Shown here one piece after another: positions 3,361-30,961 of a stretch of 64,000 nt of DNA. This DNA is from Candidatus Poribacteria bacterium (GTDB lineage Bacteria > Poribacteria > WGA-4E > WGA-3G), in NCBI GenBank assembly GCA_022827225.1, contig JAJDTJ010000035.1:1-64000 (forward strand), written 5' to 3'. Under the pieces are notes generated by a model. It was not told where the DNA came from and ran no database searches. It saw nothing but the letters and a program-made list of their open reading frames with translations. The translations under genes were made by a program, and so were the position numbers. Positions within the stretch are counted from its first letter, which is position 1, and every line of letters starts with the position of its first letter.

Positions 3361-4623
3361 ATGAACGAAAACATCCAAGAACGTATCCAATCCCAAGCGA
3401 AAAAAGCAAAATCGGCGATGCGTGTTTTATCACGGAGTTCCGCCGATGTCCGAAATAACGCGCTCTTAGCAATGGCTGAAAGCCTCCTGAATTCCAAAGA
3501 TAAAATCCAAGCCGCCAATCGCGTGGACCTCGATAACGGCGAAAAAACCGAACTCGCCGGACCGCTCATGCAACGTCTCCTGTTAGACGACAAAAAAATT
3601 GAACGCATGGTGGACAACCTCCGACAAGTCGCCGCACTCCCCGACCCGATAGGTGCCGTTATCAGTATGGGTGAACGTCCGAATGGACTCAAAATCGGGA
3701 CAGTCCGTGTCCCCATCGGTGTCGTCGCTGTCGTATACGAGTCGCGACCAGATGTGACCGTTGAAGTCTCGGCACTCTGCATCAAATCTGGAAACGGCGT
3801 TATCCTCCGTGGCGGTTCCGAGGCTATACACTCCAACGCAACACTCGCTCGGATCCTCAGCGATACCGCCGCCGCAGAAGGCGTGCCAGATGCCATCCAA
3901 TTCGTTAATACCACTGACCGACAGGCAGTCTACGAACTCATACGGCTGCCAGATTACATCGACCTTGTCATTCCACGCGGCAGCAACGAATTCGTACAAT
4001 TCTTGATGAAGGAATCCGATGTCCCGGTGCTCGGACACGCCGACGGCATCTGCCACGTCTACGTCGATAAAGCCGCCGACCTCGAAATGGCAAACAAAAT
4101 CTGCATGAACGCTAAGGTCGGATACAAAGTCGGTGTCTGTAACGCCTTAGAAACACTCCTCGTCCATGCCGATACCGCAGAACAATTCCTACCCGCTTTC
4201 TGTAAGGCACTACAAGATGCAGACGTTGAAATCCGAGGATGCGAACGGACACAGCAGCTCCACCGAACCGCTGAACCCGCAACCGAAGAAGATTGGCGCA
4301 CAGAATACCTCGATTACATCCTCTCCATCCGTGTGGTAGACGACATCGAAACGGCGATTGATCACATAGAAACCTATGGCTCACACCATTCCGACGCGAT
4401 TATCACCGAAAGCTACAGCACAGCGCAACGCTTCCTCAAAGAGGTCGATTCCGCCGCAGTCTACGTTAACGCCAGCACTGTCTTCACCGACGGCTATGAA
4501 TTCGGTCTCGGTGCCGAAGTCGGCATCAGCACACAGAAACTCCATTCCCGCGGTCCCATGGGACTCGAAGGACTCACAACCTACAAATACATCGTCTATG
4601 GAAACGGTCAAATCCGAGAATAG
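3361..4623 (+). CDS. proA: Gamma-glutamyl phosphate reductase
   Basis: 420 residues, the standard length. ProA reduces gamma-glutamyl phosphate to glutamate semialdehyde with NADPH, the second step of proline synthesis from glutamate. The catalytic cysteine is Cys260 in YKVGVCNALETLLVH. Other family blocks include VYESRPDVTVE, ILRGGSEAIHSN, and the C-terminal RGPMGLEGLTTYKY. The start at 3361 is chosen because AAAGGA precedes it and because the protein then begins like other ProA proteins. An in-frame extension to 3232 exists but precedes the predicted promoter. No proB is adjacent. Confidence 0.97.
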   Translation: MNENIQERIQSQAKKAKSAMRVLSRSSADVRNNALLAMAESLLNSKDKIQAANRVDLDNGEKTELAGPLMQRLLLDDKKIERMVDNLRQVAALPDPIGAVISMGERPNGLKIGTVRVPIGVVAVVYESRPDVTVEVSALCIKSGNGVILRGGSEAIHSNATLARILSDTAAAEGVPDAIQFVNTTDRQAVYELIRLPDYIDLVIPRGSNEFVQFLMKESDVPVLGHADGICHVYVDKAADLEMANKICMNAKVGYKVGVCNALETLLVHADTAEQFLPAFCKALQDADVEIRGCERTQQLHRTAEPATEEDWRTEYLDYILSIRVVDDIETAIDHIETYGSHHSDAIITESYSTAQRFLKEVDSAAVYVNASTVFTDGYEFGLGAEVGISTQKLHSRGPMGLEGLTTYKYIVYGNGQIRE

Positions 4624-4640
4624 GGGAGCACTACGCTCCC
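4624..4640 (+). terminator. Short GC hairpin after proA
   Basis: GGGAGC, 5-base loop, GCTCCC begins right at the proA stop codon. There is no T-run after it, so it could be a weak terminator or an mRNA-stabilising stem rather than a classical intrinsic terminator. Confidence 0.35.
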
Positions 4641-4675
4641 ATCCCAAACGACAAACCCCACACTTCCATGAAAAA

Positions 4676-4909
4676 TTAAGAAAGATCAATTTTTTCAACG
4701 CTGCTTTCAATTCCACAAGGAAGTTGACTCAGAATCAGTTTCTCCAGGTCAACTTTGTGGCTTGCATTATCAATGTCAATTCCAACAAGTCTACCCTCGG
4801 CATCATAATCAAGCAGGATGCCTTCGGAGATTTCCTGACTTTCTACACTGGGTTGTTCAGACAAGTTGATATACAACGAATCAGTCTCTGGATAGTAGTT
4901 GAGCCTCAT
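4676..4909 (-). CDS. Small DUF2283-like protein
   Basis: 77 residues. The start MRLNYYPETDSLYINL and the following EGILLDYDAEGRLVGIDI match the pattern of DUF2283 proteins (tyrosine and aspartate-rich start, then a short beta-rich core with a GI-D-I segment). The family has no firmly assigned function. GAGGG lies 8 bases before the ATG. It follows lysA by 35 bases on the same strand, so it may be read from the same transcript. A longer protein with a similar start lies at 57963. Confidence 0.75.
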   Translation of the reverse strand: MRLNYYPETDSLYINLSEQPSVESQEISEGILLDYDAEGRLVGIDIDNASHKVDLEKLILSQLPCGIESSVEKIDLS

Positions 4910-4944
4910 GGTTTGAACCCTCGATCTGGAAAGTGTTGCCTGCC

Positions 4945-15699: not shown

Positions 15700-18600
15700 T
15701 TACCGCATCGACATTTGCTCTTTCGTCTCTAACGCCCGACGCAGCACGACACCCCACTGCCCAACAACCCACAACGCTTTGCCATCTTTGGAACGCGTGA
15801 TAACATATAGATTGTTGTCGATATCGGTATGCTCCTGTTCCCACGTCTCACCGCCATCGGTTGAGCGGACAATTGTCCCTGCGTTGCCGACCGCATAGAC
15901 CTCCTTTTCGGAGAGCGCGACAACACCGTGGAGGTCTTGCGGAATGCCAGTTAACTTAGGTTCCCACGTGAATCCACCATCGGTTGTCCGTAACACAATA
16001 CCAGACTCACCCGCTGCCCATCCTTTCCGTTTCGTAATGAATGAAACAGCATTGAGGTCATAGGTGACTCCAGTTTCGTGCATCTTCCAATATTCGCCAC
16101 CATTGATAGTCCGTTGGACAACACCGCCTTGTCCAACCGCCCAACCGAGTGGGGCGAATTTCATATCCACACTCAGAAGCCTGTCGTTCACAGTCGTTCG
16201 CTGCGGTGTCCACGTCGGACCGCCGTCTTTGTTGTGGATAATGTCCCCGAATTGACCGACTGCCCAACCTTCAGAGAATTTACCAAAAGCGACATCGTTC
16301 AGCGAGAAATTACCCGGCGAATCGCCTTCCATAAACGGCGGACGTTCAGGTGTGTCACCCGCTGTCCACGTATCGCCATCTGTCGTATACAACACCGTAC
16401 CGTCGCTTTGCATCGCCCAACCCCATTTCGGTTCTAAGCTTGCGAAGTGTACACCGATGAGACGTTGACGCGTCCGACTCGGAATCGTCTCCCACGTCTG
16501 TCCACCATCTTGCGTCTCCCACAGCGCGCCACCGTCGCCTGCTATCCAGCCGTTCTTATCATCATAGAAGAGCACCTCTCGGAAATTGTTGGACTGCTGT
16601 TCACCGAGTTGGCGTTCCCATGTCTCGCCACCGTCGCCTGAGCGATAGATACTACCGGCACTCCCGACTGCCCATGCGTGTTCTGCATCAAGGAAGTACA
16701 CACTCGCAATTCGACGACCCCCACCGCGTCTACGCCTTCCCGATTCGGGAGGTGGCGGCGGTTGTTGCTCCCTTGGCGACGGAGGGGTCGCACGTTCAGT
16801 ATTCGGCGGGAGTTCGCCTTCAGGCGCAAGACGCCCTGGACGTTGTCTCTGCGCTCGAACCCGATTCTGAATTTCTTCTGGTGTTTCGTCGTATGTTAAC
16901 GTCGGTCCCTCTGTAACCTCTTCTTCCGTTTCTTCTTCTGTCTCCTCTTCCATTTCCGTTTCAGGTTCTTCGGAGAACTCTGGATTAGCTTGCCCCATAA
17001 ATATGGCGAACAGATTATCTTCTGTATTGTCGCCCGTACGAACAGGAACGGATTTCCAAGTCACGCCTCGGTCTTCGGTGATATAGGCACCACCGCCGCC
17101 GAGTCCCCAAGCGTGCGTATCGGAACGGAAGGTAACACGCTGCAAGCCGCGCGTGCTTTGTGATGTGGTTTGCAACCGCCACGTTTCGCCGCCATCTTCA
17201 GTCAACAAAGAATTCCCGTTACCGAGAACCACCCAACCGTTGTTCTCATCGGCAAAGTGGACAGCGACACCCGGTTGATTCGTTTTCGCCTGAATTTTCC
17301 AATAGTTACCGCCGTCAACAGTGTGCAGAATGAACCCACCATCTCGACGTTGCGGTGTCACTGCCCAACCTACCTGACTGCTGATGAAATGTATATCGGT
17401 GATGTTCGCCATGGTCGTCCCAGTTTTTTGGATACTCCACGTCTTTCCGCCATCTGTCGTATGTAGGATTTGACCAATCGAAGCACCGAGCCACCCTTTG
17501 TTGGCGTTTAGGAAATGCATCATGCTAACGCGCGGCAGATTCTGCTTCCTCGATTGAAGGATCGGTTTCCACGTTTCGCCACTGTCTTCGGTTTGAAGTA
17601 AGACATTGGAACCGAGCACTCTACCGTGTTTCGCGTCAACGAAGTCCACTTCACGCAAATTTTCGCTCACGCCGCTATGTTGCGGGAACCACGTTTGCCC
17701 ACCGTCCGTTGTCCGGGCGATGACACCGTCTGACCCGACTGCCCATCCGTTCTCCGTGTCTATGAAATGCGTATCCGAGAAGTTGGTGCGCCATGCCGCC
17801 TGACGGATAATGTCCCAATGATAGACAACAGGTTCAATCTGAACCTCAACTTCCGCGACAACTTCGGGTTCTTCTGCAACCGGCGGTAATTTAGCAGGCA
17901 ATTGCGCCTCTTCAATAGAGTATCGCATCGCAATGCCACCCTTACCAACAGCGACAACGCCATCAGGCGAGAGGGCAAGACCGTAAAGGTCGTTGTCGGT
18001 ACCGCTCTCCTGCATCTCCCACTTTTTTCCGCCATTGATAGTCGTTAGCATCACGCCGTTATCACCCACGATTAGACCGTGCTGTGCATCCGCAAAATAG
18101 AGTTTATTCAGATTTTCTTGTGTGCCGCTGCGTTGGAAATTCCATCTCTGTCCGCCGTTTTTTGTGTGTAGGATCTCGCCAAACTGCCCGACGATCCATC
18201 CTACATTTTCATCTGCAAAGTAGACGCCGTAGAGTTCATTGAAGGTACCGGTCGTCTGCTGCGTCCAAGTTAAACCACCGTCTTCCGTCGCGAGACAGAC
18301 ACCGGGCCACCCGATCGCCCAACCTCTCTTCTCGTCAAGAAAAAACACGCCCTTCAACATCAGAGAGAGAAAATCGCCTGTCGCGGTTTGTGGCAGCCAT
18401 GTTTTGCCACCATCAATCGTATGTATGATACTACCGAGATCCCCAACGATCCAGCCAACTTCAGGACTCACAAAGTGGACAGCACGGAGCGTGAAGGAGG
18501 AAGGACCACGCTGACGTTCCCAATTCGCGCCGCCGTCCTTGGTATGGACGATCAGCCCGCGATCGCCGACTGCCCAGCCGTGTTTATCTGTCGCGAAATA

Positions 18601-19821
18601 GATGTTCCAAATACCGTCCCAGATATCCGTTTCGAGTTCAGTCCATGTCTGTCCACCATCGTTGCTCATCGCCATCGTACCACGCCTGCCGACTGCAATC
18701 GCACGGTTGGCATCCGTAAACTGGACGTTCTGTAAATCGTTCGCTGTTGTTCCGCTCGTCATCTCCCATGTAGCACCCGCATCCGTTGTGTGCAGAATCG
18801 TGCCATACCATCCAACTGCCCACGCTTCCGTTGCGGTCGTAAACTGGATACCCGTCAAATTGTTCTCAGTCCCGCTCTCCATCAATTGCCAATTGTCGCC
18901 ACCGTCTTCCGTCCGAGTGATGAAACCAACATCCGCCACGGCGATCCCGTAATTTTCATCTGTGAAATGGATGCTATTGATCGTATCTCGGACGTGTCCA
19001 TTAATCATCGGAATACGACTGTCTTGACGCGTCCAATTAATGCCACCGTTTGTCGTATGGAAAATAGAACCGTCGCTGCCAACGATCCAACCTTCGTTGT
19101 CATTAACGAAGAAGACCTGCTTGTTGTCATTAATCATACGATCGCGTTCGCCTTCAAAGCGGTTACTCTGTTCTCGCCACGCTTTGCCACCGTTCTGGGT
19201 ATGAAAAATTCTATCGTGCGTCCCGACAACCCATCCCCTTGAATTGTCAGCAAACCAGACCCCGTTAAGCATAAATTCGCTGACATACTCGAAGCGTTTC
19301 CACTCTTTTCCACCGTTTTTAGTATAGAGAACATCCGAGTCTTCGCCAACAATCCAACCCTCTTTTGAGTTCGCAAAATACACATCGAGGAGCATCGCGG
19401 AGGTACCACTCTTTTGCAGTGTCCAGTGTCTACCGCCATCGTCAGTTGTTGCTATTAACCCTTCATCGCCGACTGCCCAACCGTAGTTCGCGTTTGTAAA
19501 ATAAACCGCTTTGAAATCCAATGAGGCATCAGGCATACGAAATCCTGGACTTGTTGTATCGACTTCCTGCTGCTGCCACGTCTTACCGCCATCTGCTGTA
19601 TGGATTATCAGACCCCCCTCGCCAACAATCCAACCCTGTCTGTGGTTGACGAAATGGATGTCTGTGAAATGTGTCTCCCAATCCGCTTTCCGCGTCGCTT
19701 CCATCTTGACACAGCCGTTGAAAAGGAACAGGATACCGAGTAGAAAGGCTATAACAAGGCTCCTAAAAACGAGTGTCGGCTTAAAAGCTATGCCAAAATT
19801 TAAATTCCGTACTAAGTTCAT
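15700..19821 (-). CDS. Very large YCF48-like propeller-repeat lipoprotein
   Basis: 1373 residues. The signal peptide ends in LFNGC, a lipobox, so Cys37 is probably lipidated. Nearly the whole protein consists of YCF48/BNR-type repeats of about 40-45 residues with the pattern GWAVG..G.I..T.DGG..W, more than twenty of them, so several propellers in a row. Two low-complexity linkers break the array: a Glu/Val-rich one near residue 605 and an acidic then Pro/Arg-rich one near residues 940-1030. In photosystem II assembly YCF48 is a scaffold, but there is no sign of photosynthesis here, so a surface binding or scaffold role is more likely. A perfect GGAGGT precedes the ATG. Confidence 0.88.
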   Translation of the reverse strand: MNLVRNLNFGIAFKPTLVFRSLVIAFLLGILFLFNGCVKMEATRKADWETHFTDIHFVNHRQGWIVGEGGLIIHTADGGKTWQQQEVDTTSPGFRMPDASLDFKAVYFTNANYGWAVGDEGLIATTDDGGRHWTLQKSGTSAMLLDVYFANSKEGWIVGEDSDVLYTKNGGKEWKRFEYVSEFMLNGVWFADNSRGWVVGTHDRIFHTQNGGKAWREQSNRFEGERDRMINDNKQVFFVNDNEGWIVGSDGSIFHTTNGGINWTRQDSRIPMINGHVRDTINSIHFTDENYGIAVADVGFITRTEDGGDNWQLMESGTENNLTGIQFTTATEAWAVGWYGTILHTTDAGATWEMTSGTTANDLQNVQFTDANRAIAVGRRGTMAMSNDGGQTWTELETDIWDGIWNIYFATDKHGWAVGDRGLIVHTKDGGANWERQRGPSSFTLRAVHFVSPEVGWIVGDLGSIIHTIDGGKTWLPQTATGDFLSLMLKGVFFLDEKRGWAIGWPGVCLATEDGGLTWTQQTTGTFNELYGVYFADENVGWIVGQFGEILHTKNGGQRWNFQRSGTQENLNKLYFADAQHGLIVGDNGVMLTTINGGKKWEMQESGTDNDLYGLALSPDGVVAVGKGGIAMRYSIEEAQLPAKLPPVAEEPEVVAEVEVQIEPVVYHWDIIRQAAWRTNFSDTHFIDTENGWAVGSDGVIARTTDGGQTWFPQHSGVSENLREVDFVDAKHGRVLGSNVLLQTEDSGETWKPILQSRKQNLPRVSMMHFLNANKGWLGASIGQILHTTDGGKTWSIQKTGTTMANITDIHFISSQVGWAVTPQRRDGGFILHTVDGGNYWKIQAKTNQPGVAVHFADENNGWVVLGNGNSLLTEDGGETWRLQTTSQSTRGLQRVTFRSDTHAWGLGGGGAYITEDRGVTWKSVPVRTGDNTEDNLFAIFMGQANPEFSEEPETEMEEETEEETEEEVTEGPTLTYDETPEEIQNRVRAQRQRPGRLAPEGELPPNTERATPPSPREQQPPPPPESGRRRRGGGRRIASVYFLDAEHAWAVGSAGSIYRSGDGGETWERQLGEQQSNNFREVLFYDDKNGWIAGDGGALWETQDGGQTWETIPSRTRQRLIGVHFASLEPKWGWAMQSDGTVLYTTDGDTWTAGDTPERPPFMEGDSPGNFSLNDVAFGKFSEGWAVGQFGDIIHNKDGGPTWTPQRTTVNDRLLSVDMKFAPLGWAVGQGGVVQRTINGGEYWKMHETGVTYDLNAVSFITKRKGWAAGESGIVLRTTDGGFTWEPKLTGIPQDLHGVVALSEKEVYAVGNAGTIVRSTDGGETWEQEHTDIDNNLYVITRSKDGKALWVVGQWGVVLRRALETKEQMSMR

Positions 19822-21130: not shown

Positions 21131-21754
21131 CTATTCGTGTTTCGCTTCAATACTGACAATAAGGCGAATCTCGTCACTAACGGCTCCTATACCGTAAGTC
21201 ATACCGAACTCACTCCGCTTAATCGTGAAAATGCTCTCAAATCCGATGAGCGATTCGCCATCTCTCCCTGTAGCGCGCCCCGTAATTTCGACATCCACTG
21301 TGATTGATTTTTTAACACCGTGTAATTCAAGATCGCCTGTGACCTCCAGCACATCTTCTTTCCCTTCCTTCGCTTTGACTTTCGTGCTTTTGAAGGTAAT
21401 CACAGGAAACTGTTTCGCACTGAAGAAATCGGAGCTTCTGAGATGTTGATCGCGTTTTTCGTTGCCAGTATCAACACTCGCTGCTTTAACCTCAAATTCC
21501 ACCATGTACCCTTCAGCATGACCGCCCGCATCCATTGAACCCATCGCTATCATGCCGGTGAATTCGTTGAATCTACCGTAATTATAAGTGACGCCATTAT
21601 GTTTTGCGCGAAAAAGTATCATTGAATGTGCGGTGTCAACTTCATACGGCGTTACACTCATAGGTTGCGTAATGCCAGCAAAACCGAGAAGTAGCAAAAG
21701 CACAAGGCTTCCGACACTGAAAATTTGCAGGTTCCGTCCTAAATCCGTTTTCAT
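21131..21754 (-). CDS. YceI family periplasmic lipid-binding protein
   Basis: 207 residues. A signal helix (about residues 13-32) precedes the YceI lipocalin-like barrel: YEVDTAHSMILFRAKHNGV, FNEFTGMI, RDQHLRSSDFFSAKQFPVITF and the late IFTIKRSEFGMTYG. Family members bind isoprenoid or polyprenyl chains in the periplasm. An AAGGAGATA site precedes the ATG. No quinone or isoprenoid gene is adjacent. Confidence 0.92.
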   Translation of the reverse strand: MKTDLGRNLQIFSVGSLVLLLLLGFAGITQPMSVTPYEVDTAHSMILFRAKHNGVTYNYGRFNEFTGMIAMGSMDAGGHAEGYMVEFEVKAASVDTGNEKRDQHLRSSDFFSAKQFPVITFKSTKVKAKEGKEDVLEVTGDLELHGVKKSITVDVEITGRATGRDGESLIGFESIFTIKRSEFGMTYGIGAVSDEIRLIVSIEAKHE

Positions 21755-22095: not shown

Positions 22096-23694
22096 ATGAA
22101 TACATTGAGATCAAAGTTTACAGTCCATCTAACCGTATATCTGCTCTCTATTGTGATGTTGCTCCCGTTTGTAGCAGCAGACAACCACGCTGGAGACACA
22201 CCCGTGAGTTACCACTCACAAATCGTCCCGATCCTCAAACGGAGCTGTCAAGGATGCCATCATCCGGGTGACCCAAACGGCGGCTTGATTGTCACAACCT
22301 ATACCGATCTCAAACAAGGCGGGATGGCGGGGGATGCAACAATCATCCCAGGGAAACCTGATGACAGTCTTATCATTGAACTCATCTCCGGCGATGAACC
22401 CGCAATGCCACAAAACATGGAACCGCTCTCCGCTGAGGAGGTCGAACTGTTCCGACGTTGGATTCTTGAAGGCGCAAATGACGATACACCCGCCGAAGTC
22501 GATGAGATGGCGGAGGGAAACTATCCGGTCTATACCGTACCGCCGGTGGTCACTGCACTGGCATACTCGCCCGATGGCAGCACGCTTGCAGTATCAGGAG
22601 TCCGCGAAGTTTTATTGTATGACACAGTAAATTTTGAACTCAAAGCGCGATTGGTAGGTAAAGCGCGGCGAATAGAATCGTTGACATATACGACAGATGG
22701 CAAAACTTTAGGCGTAGCAAGCGGATCGCCCGCACAATTCGGCGAAGTACAACTCTGGGATACCGCAACCAATACGCTTATCAAAGCCATACGTTCCAGT
22801 TACGATACAATTTACGGACTCTCCTTCTCACCCGATGCCAGCCGCGTCGCTTTCGGATGCTCAGATCAGACGGTCCGCGTCCTATCCGTTGAAGATGAAA
22901 AAGAGCGCATTAAATTTGATAATCATAGCGATTGGGTTTTCGGGACCGTCTTTTCTACGGACGGCTCCCATTTCGTGAGTGCCGGACGTGATACCGCCCT
23001 CAAATTGGTTGAGGTGAACACAGGCTCTTTCGTTGACGACATCAACTCCAGCAATAAAGGCTACGGAGAGATCAACACCATCGCACGGCATCCGACCAAA
23101 GATCAAGTCTTGAGTGCAGGTGAAGACCGGATACCACGGCTCTACAAAATCTTCCGCGAAATCCGAAGAGATGTCGGAAATACAGACTTTAACCTCATTC
23201 GAGCCTATGAAGCGCAGTCGGGGACAATTGAAGGCGTAGCGTTTTCAGCAGACGGCAGTCGGTTTGCCACTGGCAGCGCAGGCGGTGAAGCACGTATCTA
23301 TAACGTAGCCGATGGAAAACGGTTGGCAAGCATGCAAGGCGATGCAGTCGGTGTCTTTGCAGTCTCCTTCCATCCTGATGGGACACAACTCGCCACGGGC
23401 GGGTTCGACGGAAAGATCCGGATATTTGACACTTCTGGGAAACTACTGAACGCCTTTATGTCCGTGCCGATCGAACCTGCCGGAAGTGAGGATGTCGCGC
23501 TGGTCGTCTCAGGCATGACGTGAGGGGCTTGTGTCACAAAAGTGCAGGCTGCACTTTCACAACATCAGAGCGTTATCAGTGTTGAAGTCTCGCTACCCGA
23601 TCAGGCAATCATTAAAGTCCGAAAAAACACCGCCACTGCAGCTGACCTTGCAGGGATCGTTGAAGCGACCGGGTTTAGTGCAACGGCTAAATAA
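22096..23694 (+). CDS. Cytochrome c/WD40/HMA fusion, candidate selenoprotein with TGA codon 476
   Basis: 532 residues if TGA at 23521-23523 is read as selenocysteine; a conventional caller would stop there at 475 residues. After a signal peptide (cleavage near residue 29), CQGCH at 51-55 is a heme c site in a planctomycete-type cytochrome domain. Residues about 140-460 are WD40 blades. Residues about 466-532 form a heavy-metal-associated domain: VALVVSGMT, TGA, GAC, then VTKVQAAL, VISVEVSLPD, IIKVRKNT and ADLAGIVEATGFS, matching the beta-alpha-beta-beta-alpha-beta order. The TGA falls on the first Cys of GMTCxxC. The start at 22096 follows GGGAGGG; a TTG at 22069 would precede that site. Location is probably periplasmic or membrane-associated. 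The alternative is a single-base nonsense mutation or error. Confidence 0.8.
23529..23562 (+). promoter_or_regulatory. SECIS-like hairpin downstream of the in-frame TGA
   Basis: AAAGTGCA (23539-23546) pairs perfectly with TGCACTTT (23550-23557) around the loop GGC. Below a 5-base bulge on the 5' side, TTGTG (23529-23533) pairs with CACAA (23558-23562). The loop begins with G and lies 23 bases after the TGA, within the spacing known for bacterial SECIS elements, and the apex GCAGGCTGC is close to the E. coli fdhF hairpin apex. Confidence 0.7.
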
Positions 23695-28410: not shown

Positions 28411-28476
28411 GTGTCTCCTCCGTCAACTATCGTCGGAGGTACCTACGCCGAGTTTTTTGATGAAACCCAGGTCTAA
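28411..28476 (+). CDS. Possible 21-residue leader peptide overlapping the DUF1549 gene
   Basis: AAGGAGGT at 28401-28408 is the strongest ribosome-binding site nearby, yet it lies 50 bases before the DUF1549 ATG. It is followed by GTG at 28411, opening a 21-codon frame (SPPSTIVGGTYAEFFDETQV after the first residue) that ends at TAA 28474-28476, overlapping the main start ATG at 28460. Spacing from GGAGG to GTG is only 3 bases, which is short. It may be a coupled leader or may not be translated. Confidence 0.3.
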   Translation: MSPPSTIVGGTYAEFFDETQV

Positions 28477-30961
28477 TTTTGTAACAGCGCTCCTTGTCGC
28501 ATGCTCTATCTGCTTCGTGTTCCACTTAGCAGCATGGGCGGAAATGACGCAGCCTGCAAATGCGGAGATTCCGACAGCGGAGGAATGGATTGCAAGCGTC
28601 GCTTTAACGGAGTTGAAGGTCCATCCAGAAACACTGACGTTAGAGCATGCCCGCGACGGTAGACGCATACTTGTCTCGGGTAAGACGAAAGATGGTACAT
28701 GGGTGGATGTAACACCGTGGGCAGTGCTGACACCCGCGAATGCCACGGTGAAAGTACATGAAGATGGCTATATCTTCCCAGAATCTGTCGGCACAACGAA
28801 CATTGTCGTTACCGTCAAGGGCGTGAGCACCGGATTGCCAGTTACCGTCAATAGTGTTGGAGCACAACCTGTCAGTTTTGTACGAGATGTCATGCCGCTC
28901 CTCAGCCATGCCGGATGTAATAACGGCACATGCCACGGTGCAGCGAAAGGGAAAAACGGATTCAAACTTTCACTTCGCGGTTATGATCCCGATTTTGATT
29001 ATGAACTCCTGATTGAGGATATATCTGGCAGACGTTTCAACCGAGCGTTCCCCGAACAGAGCCTAATGCTCCTAAAACCGACATCCGAAGTACCACACAA
29101 AGGTGGACAGGTCATCGTACCCGAATCACGCGATTACGAACTGATCCGCCAATGGATAGCGGAGGGCGCGAATTCTGATGTCGAAACGACGCAACGGGTC
29201 GAAAGATTAGAGGTCCTACCGGATTCTGCTGAACTTGCTACGCCAGGAATGAAGCAGCAACTGATAGTGATCGCTCACTATCCAGATGGCACAACACGGG
29301 ATGTCACCCGTGAAGCGAAATTTACGAGCAGCGTCAATGAAGTCGCAAAGATCACGGATGACGGTGTGATAACTGCAGAACGCCGTGGCGAAACCGCTAT
29401 TCTTACCCGATATGAGGGCGCATACAGCACGAACGGTATCATCGTTATGGGCGACAGGAGCGGGTACAAGTGGGTTGAAACGCCTGAATACAACTACATT
29501 GATACGCACGTACACAATAAACTCAAACGGATGAAAATCCTGCCATCTGAGCTCTGTACCGATGAAGAATTCGTACGCCGTATCTATTTTGATCTTACAG
29601 GCTTACCACCAACACCTGAGCAGGCTCGCAGCTTCCTCACGGATACCGCGGATTCTAAAACCAAACGCGAAAAACTAATTGACGTACTCGTCGAAACGCC
29701 TGAGTTTGTTGACCACTGGACGCATAAATGGGCAGACCTGTTACAATCTAACCGTAAGTTCCTCGGGGAACGCGGGGTCTGGCTCTTCCGGGAGTGGATA
29801 CATCAGGCTATCGCACAGAACCGTCCCTATGACGAATTCGTGCGGGAACTAATCACTTCAACCGGAAGTACATATCAGAACCCTGCGGCAAACTATTTCC
29901 GCGTCTCACGTGAATACACGGCTGCCGTGGAGAACACAACGCAACTCTTCTTAGGTGTCCGATTCTCTTGCAACAAGTGCCACGATCATCCGTTTGAGAA
30001 ATGGACACAAAATCAGTATTATGAACTCGGCGCGTTTTTCGCTGATGTGAAAATAAAGCCAGGGCAGCTACCGGGCGATGAAGTCGTCTACGCAAGTTAC
30101 ACCCCTCAATCCGTGCAACATCCACGAACGTTAGCAGTGGTTAACCCGTCTGTCCCGTTTGGGGAAGTTACCGCACAAGTCGATAATAAGCAACAGATGC
30201 TCGCAACATGGCTTACCGCAAAGGATAACCCAATGTTCGCACGCGCAGGCGTCAACCGTATCTGGAGCTACTTCATGGGGCGCGGGATTATTGAACCAGT
30301 TGACGACATCCGAACAAGTAATCCACCGAGTAATCCGGAACTGCTTGATGCGTTGACAAAAGATTTCGTCGACAGTGGGTTCGACATGAAGCATGTCATG
30401 AAGACAATCACACGTTCACGAGCCTATCAACAGAGCATCAAGACAAATAAGTGGAACAAGTCAGATACCATTAACTTCTCACACGCCGTCGCAAGACGTT
30501 TAACAGCTGAACAGCTGTTAGATGCTATCGGTGTTGCAACAGGAAGCCGACCACGATTTCAGGAGGTACCTAAAGACTTCCGCGCAGCCCAATTACCAGA
30601 TAGCAAAGTCAAAGATGACGGATTTTTGAAACTCTTTGGTAGACCCGAACGCGAGACTTCTTGTGAATGTGAACGCACAACTGAGGTCAGTCTCGCACAC
30701 GCAATGAACCTCATTAATGGACCCACCGTCGCAGAGGCACTCATTGATCCAGAAGGACGGGTCGCAAAACTCATTAAAACGAATCAAGATGACCGAGTTC
30801 TCGTTGAGGAACTATATCTCGCAACACTTTCTCGGTTACCAGAGAAGAACGAATATGCAGTAGCGGTTGAACACATCGCAAAGGCTGAATCGAGAGAAGA
30901 AGGCGCACAAGATTTGTTGTGGGCATTAATCAATAGTCCCGCCTTCTTATTCAATCGCTAA
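28460..30961 (+). CDS. Planctomycete-type cytochrome with DUF1549 and DUF1553 domains
   Basis: 833 residues from ATG 28460. After a signal peptide comes a bacterial Ig-like (BIG_2) segment at about 50-130. CNNGTCH at 153-159 is the CX4CH heme-type motif usual for this family, and CNKCH near residue 508 is a second heme site inside DUF1549 (EFVRRIYFDLTGLPPTPEQA, VDHWTHKWADLLQ). DUF1553 follows (VNRIWSYFMGRGIIEP, LAHAMNLINGPTV). A second BIG_2-like stretch lies near 250-330. Function is not established; a periplasmic electron-transfer or glycan-related role has been suggested for the family. It is the first gene of a set with DUF1501 and PPC-domain genes. Confidence 0.92.
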   Translation: MKPRSNFVTALLVACSICFVFHLAAWAEMTQPANAEIPTAEEWIASVALTELKVHPETLTLEHARDGRRILVSGKTKDGTWVDVTPWAVLTPANATVKVHEDGYIFPESVGTTNIVVTVKGVSTGLPVTVNSVGAQPVSFVRDVMPLLSHAGCNNGTCHGAAKGKNGFKLSLRGYDPDFDYELLIEDISGRRFNRAFPEQSLMLLKPTSEVPHKGGQVIVPESRDYELIRQWIAEGANSDVETTQRVERLEVLPDSAELATPGMKQQLIVIAHYPDGTTRDVTREAKFTSSVNEVAKITDDGVITAERRGETAILTRYEGAYSTNGIIVMGDRSGYKWVETPEYNYIDTHVHNKLKRMKILPSELCTDEEFVRRIYFDLTGLPPTPEQARSFLTDTADSKTKREKLIDVLVETPEFVDHWTHKWADLLQSNRKFLGERGVWLFREWIHQAIAQNRPYDEFVRELITSTGSTYQNPAANYFRVSREYTAAVENTTQLFLGVRFSCNKCHDHPFEKWTQNQYYELGAFFADVKIKPGQLPGDEVVYASYTPQSVQHPRTLAVVNPSVPFGEVTAQVDNKQQMLATWLTAKDNPMFARAGVNRIWSYFMGRGIIEPVDDIRTSNPPSNPELLDALTKDFVDSGFDMKHVMKTITRSRAYQQSIKTNKWNKSDTINFSHAVARRLTAEQLLDAIGVATGSRPRFQEVPKDFRAAQLPDSKVKDDGFLKLFGRPERETSCECERTTEVSLAHAMNLINGPTVAEALIDPEGRVAKLIKTNQDDRVLVEELYLATLSRLPEKNEYAVAVEHIAKAESREEGAQDLLWALINSPAFLFNR

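What the first reader, a model, noticed from the sequence alone, without database searches (positions are those of the whole stretch)
23521..23694. In-frame TGA at the first cysteine of an HMA domain: candidate selenoprotein
The cytochrome/WD40 gene reaches TGA at 23521 in the context GMT-TGA-GAC. The same frame continues 57 codons to TAA and encodes the rest of a complete heavy-metal-associated domain in correct beta-alpha-beta-beta-alpha-beta order. The TGA replaces exactly the first Cys of GMTCxxC, giving UxxC, the replacement pattern known for many redox and metal-binding selenoproteins. A random nonsense mutation would hit this one codon only by chance, and the downstream frame shows no decay. 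I recall selenocysteine-containing mercury-binding or transport proteins from marine surveys, but not this fusion.
Basis: partly seen in the sequence, partly recalled or inferred. Interest (0 to 1): 0.95.

Follow-up and report, generated by a model that had tools for sequence, protein, structure and literature searches.

The report
Selenium-dependent metal-binding tail on cytochrome propeller
In bacteria of the candidate phylum Poribacteria, a gene for a probably exported cytochrome/propeller protein has an internal UGA stop codon that is conserved among relatives and is likely read as the rare amino acid selenocysteine, which would add a predicted metal-binding tail missing from the database copies examined.

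Summary
TGA 23521-23523 interrupts a PSCyt1 cytochrome/WD40 gene exactly at the first ligand of GMT-x-GAC; 56 more sense codons, a PF00403 HMA domain, follow before TAA. The codon was read in 58 orthologue loci: 55 TGA, 3 Cys. A hairpin core GUGCAGGNUGCAC begins 18 nt after the TGA in 55 of 55 TGA forms and 0 of 3 Cys forms. It fits the published geometry of bacterial SECIS elements, and its codons show zero synonymous change (lowest of 447 windows). The window's own genome has tRNA-Sec, selA, selB and a UGA-containing selD, plus four more small HMA genes with UxxC and a like hairpin. The selenoprotein call is thus strongly supported by comparison; no protein evidence exists. Sec-containing metal proteins of Mer/HMA type were known, but this architecture is not in a 2026 inventory of 119 families whose table I read. 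Fetched homologues without HMA end at the same boundary (24 of 24), so UGA termination would leave a complete ancestral-type protein, and selenium might set how much carries the tail. Metal binding is inferred. New variant of a known kind.

The parts
22096..23694 (+). whole gene read through UGA: 532 residues, ATG 22096, UGA 23521, TAA 23692 (an upstream TTG 22069 is also possible)
22096..22182 (+). N-terminal signal peptide (inferred)
   Evidence: hydrophobic N-terminus followed by AAD; predicted helix 4-26; no signal-peptide program run
22246..22410 (+). PSCyt1 c-type cytochrome domain, residues 51-105, heme motif CQGCH at 22246-22260
   Evidence: PF07635 39.8 bits, cut-off 22; C51, G53, C54, H55 invariant in 31 aligned sequences
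22552..23469 (+). WD40 beta-propeller, about residues 153-458
   Evidence: PF00400 105.6 bits; strands in the model
23506..23676 (+). HMA (heavy-metal-associated) domain
   Evidence: PF00403 28.6 bits over cut-off 24.8 with the UGA in place; 37.7 bits read through with Cys
23521..23523 (+). in-frame UGA, predicted selenocysteine 476 (first metal ligand of GMTUGAC)
   Evidence: TGA in 55 of 58 orthologue loci, Cys in 3
23530..23532 (+). second ligand, Cys479 (TGT)
   Evidence: Cys in 52 of 52 same-family TGA orthologues
23539..23557 (+). predicted bacterial SECIS hairpin, AAAGUGCA-GGC-UGCACUUU, 8 bp, loop GGC starting 23 nt after the UGA
   Evidence: core GUGCAGGNUGCAC in 55 of 55 TGA forms; zero synonymous change in codons +6 to +10
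21131..21754 (-). neighbour: YceI-like protein
   Evidence: PF04264 149.9 bits
23716..25200 (+). neighbour: sulfatase; found downstream in 47 of 51 named same-family loci, within 100 nt of the stop in 35
   Evidence: PF00884 160.5 bits; synteny
28457..30961 (+). PSCyt2/PSD1 protein; a homologue starts 0.2-1.5 kb downstream in 8 of 9 orthologues of the other Poribacteria families (L121-L127, L042; not found at L128)
   Evidence: PF07583 and PF07587; synteny

Best explanation
The UGA at 23521-23523 is predicted to be decoded as selenocysteine, giving a probably exported cytochrome/WD40 protein whose C-terminal HMA domain would likely bind soft metal ions through a selenocysteine-x-x-cysteine pair. 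Shown by sequence: the UGA/Cys exchange pattern, the conserved hairpin after the UGA, purifying selection on the 56 codons after it, and the full Sec machinery in the genome. Inferred: SelB carrying Sec-tRNA-Sec binds the hairpin and inserts Sec; the protein is exported because it has a signal-like N-terminus and a c-type heme motif; in the periplasm the selenolate/thiolate pair captures Hg(II), Cu(I) or a similar ion, as the Cys pair does in MerP and CopZ (established knowledge, recalled), with the heme domain possibly keeping the pair reduced. My confidence is about 0.95 for the Sec codon and about 0.6 for metal capture as its function; the number below is for the Sec part.
For: Codon state: 55 of 58 orthologue loci TGA, 3 Cys. 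Across 84 genomes of the phylum, 66 have an orthologue at E <= 1e-90: 60 with one in-frame TGA and 6 with none (3 Cys forms, 3 without HMA). Chromosome-level records such as L076, L079 and L090 show it too, so an error in one assembly cannot explain it. Hairpin: GUGCAGGNUGCAC in 55 of 55 TGA forms and 0 of 3 Cys forms; random synonymous recoding of the window's stretch gives an equally stable hairpin in 0.17% of 20,000 draws. Loop GGN, stem of at least 5 bp, 23 nt from the UGA, within the bSECIS geometry read in PMC13188914. Synonymous change is zero in codons +6 to +10, the lowest of 447 five-codon windows between codons -400 and +56 (median pS 0.661). Selection: dN/dS 0.153 over +1 to +56 (51 orthologues); after the final stop about 0.64 (36 same-genus loci, ungapped register). 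Machinery: tRNA-Sec, selA, selB, selD. Four further HMA genes of this genome have a UGA at the same ligand with a like hairpin. A pattern drawn from these five matches 7 places in 5.6 Mb, against 0 for the reversed control; the two extra places are a UGSC-type gene and one without a sensible frame.
Against: No peptide or selenium data. Energy alone does not single out the hairpin: z-scores -0.15, -1.49, 0.03 and -0.68 for four stretches. The 19-nt hairpin alone ranges from -4.9 to -9.9 kcal/mol in the 55 forms (-7.3 in the window), so not all reach the -7.5 of the published model by themselves. Covariation is not significant, because the core hardly varies. Two of the 3 Cys forms can still fold a hairpin of -6.1 and -6.6 kcal/mol, though not the motif. 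The HMA tail is less constrained than the propeller (dN/dS 0.153 against 0.061). Of 39 TGA-form genomes among the 60 searched, 34 show tRNA-Sec and 36 a selA match (one of these only a fragment below cut-off); one (G030) shows neither, which I put down to draft assembly without proof. The Cys forms occur in genomes that still have tRNA-Sec (3 of 3) and selA (2 of 3), so Cys does not follow loss of the machinery. Nothing here tests metal binding.
Confidence: 0.95

Rival explanations
1. The gene ends at the UGA. The 475-residue cytochrome/WD40 protein is the only product and the HMA tail is a relic of a nonsense mutation.
For: Databases hold the protein this way: of the 120 homologues listed (of 1524 found), 119 end exactly at ...GMT, the residue before the UGA, and none has the HMA motif. 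Deeper homologues end at this boundary (24 of 24 fetched).
Against: The tail stays open in 55 orthologues, down to about 53% identity, is under purifying selection (51 aligned), the codon exchanges only with Cys, and hairpin codons are frozen at synonymous sites.
Confidence: 0.02
2. UGA is a sense codon in this organism (Trp or Gly) or is read through by a near-cognate tRNA, so residue 476 is not Sec.
For: The frame is open across the UGA.
Against: TGA ends 6 of 40 ORFs of at least 250 aa in the window (this one counted) and 12 of 38 in seven other loci of the genome. The genome has tRNA-Sec with anticodon TCA plus selA, selB and selD. Exchange is with Cys, not Trp or Gly.
Confidence: 0.02
3. 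Function rival, same Sec codon: the UxxC pair works as a periplasmic selenol/thiol redox centre coupled to the heme, not as a metal trap.
For: The review calls UxxC a redox-related motif and thinks most uncharacterised selenoproteins redox proteins (PMC13188914, section 7 part 1 read). A c-type heme domain lies in the same chain.
Against: The fold and motif are HMA/MerP/CopZ-like. Residues between the ligands vary (GA, GV, PA, VA, AL, AG), which I think fits a ligand pair better than a tuned redox site.
Confidence: 0.3
4. Sequencing or assembly error in one MAG.
For: The window genome is a 151-contig draft.
Against: An in-frame TGA is found in the orthologue of 60 genomes of the phylum, including chromosome-level records such as L076, L079 and L090, where the codon was read.
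Confidence: 0.005

Closest known systems
Cation-transporting ATPase, Sec-containing (UxxC; TIGR01525 in PMC13188914 Table 1)
   Same: Sec in a UxxC motif of a metal-transport protein; that the motif lies in its HMA domain is recalled
   Different: a membrane P-type ATPase; here a predicted periplasmic cytochrome/WD40 protein with one C-terminal HMA
NF041115 UxxU metal-binding (seleno)protein
   Same: best NCBIfam hit of the tail (37.0 bits), a Sec-containing metal-binding family
   Different: below its cut-off of 95 bits; UxxU instead of UxxC; small stand-alone protein (74-position model)
Sec-containing MerP of the Global Ocean Sampling survey (PMC2398784, one table row seen; its first number, 2, I take as the number of sequences)
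   Same: MerP is a periplasmic HMA protein (recalled); Sec-containing in marine bacteria
   Different: MerP is stand-alone (recalled); TIGR02052 MerP cut-off 92.55 not reached here (25.2 and 29.8 bits)
NF045683 MerT/CopZ fusion-like heavy metal transport selenoprotein
   Same: by its name a fusion with a CopZ-like module in a selenoprotein; matches the four small UxxC proteins of this genome below cut-off
   Different: MerT partner, cut-off 375 bits; no hit for the window protein at E 0.001
PSCyt1-WD40 proteins of Verrucomicrobiota, Armatimonadota, Acidobacteriota and other Poribacteria (L126-L149)
   Same: same cytochrome/propeller body, 40-63% identical
   Different: end 3-18 codons after the matched body, no HMA-like motif in 24 of 24

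Membership tests
bacterial selenoprotein | in-frame UGA conserved in orthologues | tested here: met
   TGA in 55 of 58 loci; 60 of 66 genomes with an orthologue
bacterial selenoprotein | Cys-containing homologue aligned with the UGA | tested here: met
   L121 TGT, L122 TGC, L042 TGT
bacterial selenoprotein | bSECIS geometry: loop 3-9 nt with G in first two positions, stem 4-16 bp, 16-37 nt from UGA | tested here: met
   loop GGC, 8 bp, 23 nt; rules from PMC13188914
[quoted passage not shown]
   -11.3 for the 50 nt from the UGA, -7.3 for the 19-nt hairpin alone
bacterial selenoprotein | Sec machinery (tRNA-Sec, SelA, SelB, SelD) in the genome | tested here: met
bacterial selenoprotein | Sec residue found in the protein | not testable with these tools
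   needs mass spectrometry or 75Se
HMA domain PF00403 | score over Pfam gathering cut-off | tested here: met
   28.6 and 37.7 bits against 24.8
HMA domain PF00403 | two soft-metal ligands in GMTCxxC | tested here: inconclusive
   second Cys in 52 of 52 same-family orthologues; the first ligand exists only if UGA is read as Sec or Cys
NF041115 UxxU metal-binding selenoprotein | score over 95 bits | tested here: not met
   32.3 bits whole protein, 37.0 tail
TIGR02052 MerP | score over 92.55 bits | tested here: not met
   25.2 and 29.8 bits
PSCyt1 planctomycete cytochrome c | PF07635 over cut-off and CxxCH | tested here: met
   39.8 bits, cut-off 22; CQGCH

The most novel reading that the evidence does not exclude
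The UGA is a selenium-gated domain switch. It sits at a domain boundary where all 24 fetched HMA-free homologues end, so termination yields the complete ancestral cytochrome/propeller protein and Sec insertion appends the metal-binding HMA domain; the cell's selenium supply would thereby set the ratio of two working proteins from one gene.
Probability: 0.25. Interest if true: 0.8.

Novelty: new variant of a known kind. Interest (0 to 1): 0.66.

Why it matters
It adds a selenoprotein architecture (heme domain, propeller, Sec-HMA) to the list and shows a candidate phylum with a set of likely exported Sec-HMA proteins (five genes in this genome). It also shows a systematic annotation loss: 119 of 120 listed database copies stop exactly at the UGA. 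Because the UGA coincides with an ancestral C-terminus, the gene makes a directly testable question of whether Sec codons can act as selenium-controlled switches between two functional proteins. Sec as a metal ligand in exported HMA domains would bear on mercury and copper handling in sponge-associated bacteria.

Tried and rejected
Code reassignment was rejected because TGA ends other long ORFs. Energy z-scores and covariation gave no support and are reported as such. Upstream dN/dS values were discarded because the register ignored indels; redid them on a codon alignment (51 of the 52 same-family loci; one was too short). I tried to polarise Sec versus Cys with a tree of the propeller (32 rows): the three Poribacteria groups with HMA are joined by open forks and the 3 Cys rows did not come out as one group, though one group is not ruled out, so the direction of exchange is unresolved; one row (L042) carried extra upstream residues, and a long-branch warning was given. 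Gene contexts of the four small HMA genes showed no clear metal operon (read by eye, no family scan of the neighbours). The window alone holds no tRNA or Rfam match. The phylum-wide PF00403 search (81 genomes) was cut short in its listing, so I give no phylum count of Sec-HMA domains. The tRNA-Sec search over 60 genomes used stricter filters that can lose weak matches. Comparison of the model with fold libraries was not run.

Full report
What is there. The gene at 22096-23694 encodes an N-terminal signal-like segment, a PSCyt1 c-type cytochrome domain (CQGCH), a WD40 propeller and, after TGA 23521-23523, a tail of 56 sense codons ending at TAA. The tail is an HMA domain by Pfam (37.7 bits with Cys for the UGA, cut-off 24.8), by sequence similarity to solved copper-ATPase, CopZ and MerP domains (33 distinct PDB sequences at E <= 0.01) and by the predicted beta-alpha-beta-beta-alpha-beta order (mean pLDDT 83.9, 31 sequences, Cys for Sec). 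The TGA takes the place of the first Cys of GMTCxxC; the second Cys is present.

Comparison. In 84 genomes of the same phylum, 66 hold an orthologue at E <= 1e-90: 60 with exactly one in-frame TGA (61 matches, G070 having two), and 6 without (3 with Cys, 3 that end before the HMA); 18 have none at that threshold. I read the codon itself in 58 loci (window copy, 56 named public loci, one unnamed): 55 TGA, two TGT, one TGC. Three further named Poribacteria loci have no HMA motif. One locus, L099, carries two copies, both TGA, of which one was counted. The named records are Candidatus Poribacteria. The window's genome itself is unnamed; it is placed there by its relatives, the nearest named one being 93% identical.

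RNA signal. Eighteen nucleotides after the TGA begins GUGCAGGNUGCAC, in 55 of 55 TGA forms and 0 of 3 Cys forms. In the window it extends to an 8-bp stem with loop GGC, 23 nt from the UGA. The published bacterial SECIS model asks for a 3-9 nt loop with G among its first two bases, a 4-16 bp stem, 16-37 nt spacing and MFE <= -7.5 kcal/mol (PMC13188914, passages read); the first three are met, and the energy is met for the 50 nt from the UGA (-11.3) but not quite for the 19-nt hairpin alone (-7.3 in the window, -4.9 to -9.9 over the 55 forms). In 51 aligned same-family orthologues, codons +6 to +10 have no synonymous change, although codon +6 varies between Lys and Arg and codon +9 between Ala, Asp and Gly (52 loci). 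This is the lowest of 447 five-codon windows between codons -400 and +56 (median pS 0.661), and the seven lowest windows all overlap it. That is what selection on RNA rather than protein looks like. Against it: energies are not unusual for the composition, covariation cannot be shown, and two Cys forms still fold a hairpin of similar energy.

Machinery. The window's own genome has tRNA-Sec (76.4 bits) with selB just upstream, selA and selD with its own UGA. Among 60 relatives (own genome counted), 52 have tRNA-Sec and 52 a selA match. Of the 39 TGA-form genomes among them, 34 and 36 do; G030 shows neither. Genomes with the Cys form still have tRNA-Sec (3 of 3) and selA (2 of 3), so the exchange is not explained by loss of the machinery.

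A set, not a single case. This genome has 8 HMA hits at E <= 0.01, 5 with a TGA inside. The four others are small proteins with a lipoprotein-like N-terminus (read by eye) and UxxC, two of them neighbours on contig C42, with a like hairpin at the same distance; in two the motif is GTGCGGTCTGCAC. A pattern for UGA plus hairpin, drawn from these five, hits the 5.6-Mb genome 7 times, against 0 for the reversed control: the 5 HMA genes, one UGSC-type gene, and one place without a sensible frame.

How it probably works. SelB brings Sec-tRNA-Sec to the UGA on the hairpin's signal (established mechanism; shown here only by sequence). The product would be exported, carry a heme, and present a selenolate/thiolate pair in an HMA fold. 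The nearest relatives of that fold are copper and mercury proteins, so I commit to soft-metal capture, likelihood about 0.6, with a heme-linked redox role as the main rival.

Domain boundary. Of the 80 loci kept (171 found), 24 lack the HMA (3 Poribacteria, 21 others, mostly Verrucomicrobiota). All 24 end 3-18 codons after the matched body, with no HMA-like motif (one regular expression) in the next 60 in-frame codons. The UGA-terminated 475-residue product would thus be a complete protein of the ancestral kind. Whether both forms are made is untested; this is the novel case.

What is known. A 2026 review counts 119 prokaryotic selenoprotein families and subfamilies; I read its Table 1 (section 7 parts 1 and 2 of 3). 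It has a UxxC cation ATPase, a UxxU metal-binding protein and a MerT-like protein, but no WD40, PSCyt1 or HMA-fusion entry. The ocean survey PMC2398784 lists a Sec MerP (one table passage seen). NCBIfam has NF041115 and NF045683, neither reached by this protein. Full-text searches for 'selenoprotein' with 'HMA domain' or 'heavy metal-associated domain' found no paper. 'Poribacteria' with 'selenocysteine' found two: in PMC5649159 I read passages, which note SelA and SelB together in the majority of sponge symbiont bins of various phyla; the other was seen in the listing only. 'Selenoprotein', 'WD40', 'cytochrome c' and 'bacterial' together found three papers that look unrelated from their titles (listing only). 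In PMC9312934 I saw passages, and a term search in PMC12013277 found nothing. Searches gave listings only beyond the papers named. Databases hold this protein cut at the UGA: of 120 listed homologues (of 1524 found), 119 end exactly at ...GMT, one has a different end, and none has the HMA motif.

Verdict. It is a new variant of a known kind; protein evidence and metal-binding tests are outstanding.

Noticed in passing
L150:3873-4271 and 4548-4931 (G000:C42): two neighbouring small HMA genes with a lipoprotein-like N-terminus (by eye), each with one in-frame TGA at the ligand (GMTUGSC, GMTUGAC) and the same hairpin
   Followed up: partly
L151:4381-4668 (G000:C3) and L152:4578-4859 (G000:C47): two further small HMA genes with UGGC motifs and hairpin GTGCGGTCTGCAC, in which a stem A-U pair has become G-U
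   Followed up: partly
L156:1501 (G000:C13:21128): UGSC-type gene with in-frame TGA and hairpin GTGCAGTATGCAC, resembling the known UGSC selenoprotein family (not scored against its model)
   Followed up: no
L058:2296-3339 (G000:C84): selD itself has an in-frame TGA (CAGUASK); a short GCTC-CGGGT-GAGC inverted repeat follows (by eye)
   Followed up: partly
L009:7396-12943 (G000:C17): selB lies directly upstream of tRNA-Sec, after lepA-like and two signal-peptidase-like genes (by eye); selA (C39) and selD (C84) lie on other contigs
   Followed up: no
G046:C102:15269-15451, G036:C24 (two), G038:C11: TGA-containing HMA hits in other Poribacteria families, including a genome whose WD40 fusion has Cys
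   Followed up: no
L056 and L057 (G032:C55, G030:C20): other WD40 proteins with one in-frame TGA in relatives; fetched but not analysed
   Followed up: no
L121-L127 and L042, downstream of the orthologue: a PSCyt2/PSD1 gene starts 0.2-1.5 kb downstream of the orthologue outside the window's family (8 of 9, not at L128); within the family a sulfatase has come between
   Followed up: partly
G070:C168 and G070:C188: two copies of the gene in one draft genome, 77% and 91% identical to the window's; the second may be contamination
   Followed up: no
window 15700-19821: 1373-aa protein of many GWAVGxxGxIxxTxDGGxTW repeats (Ycf48/photosystem-assembly-like, recalled)
   Followed up: no
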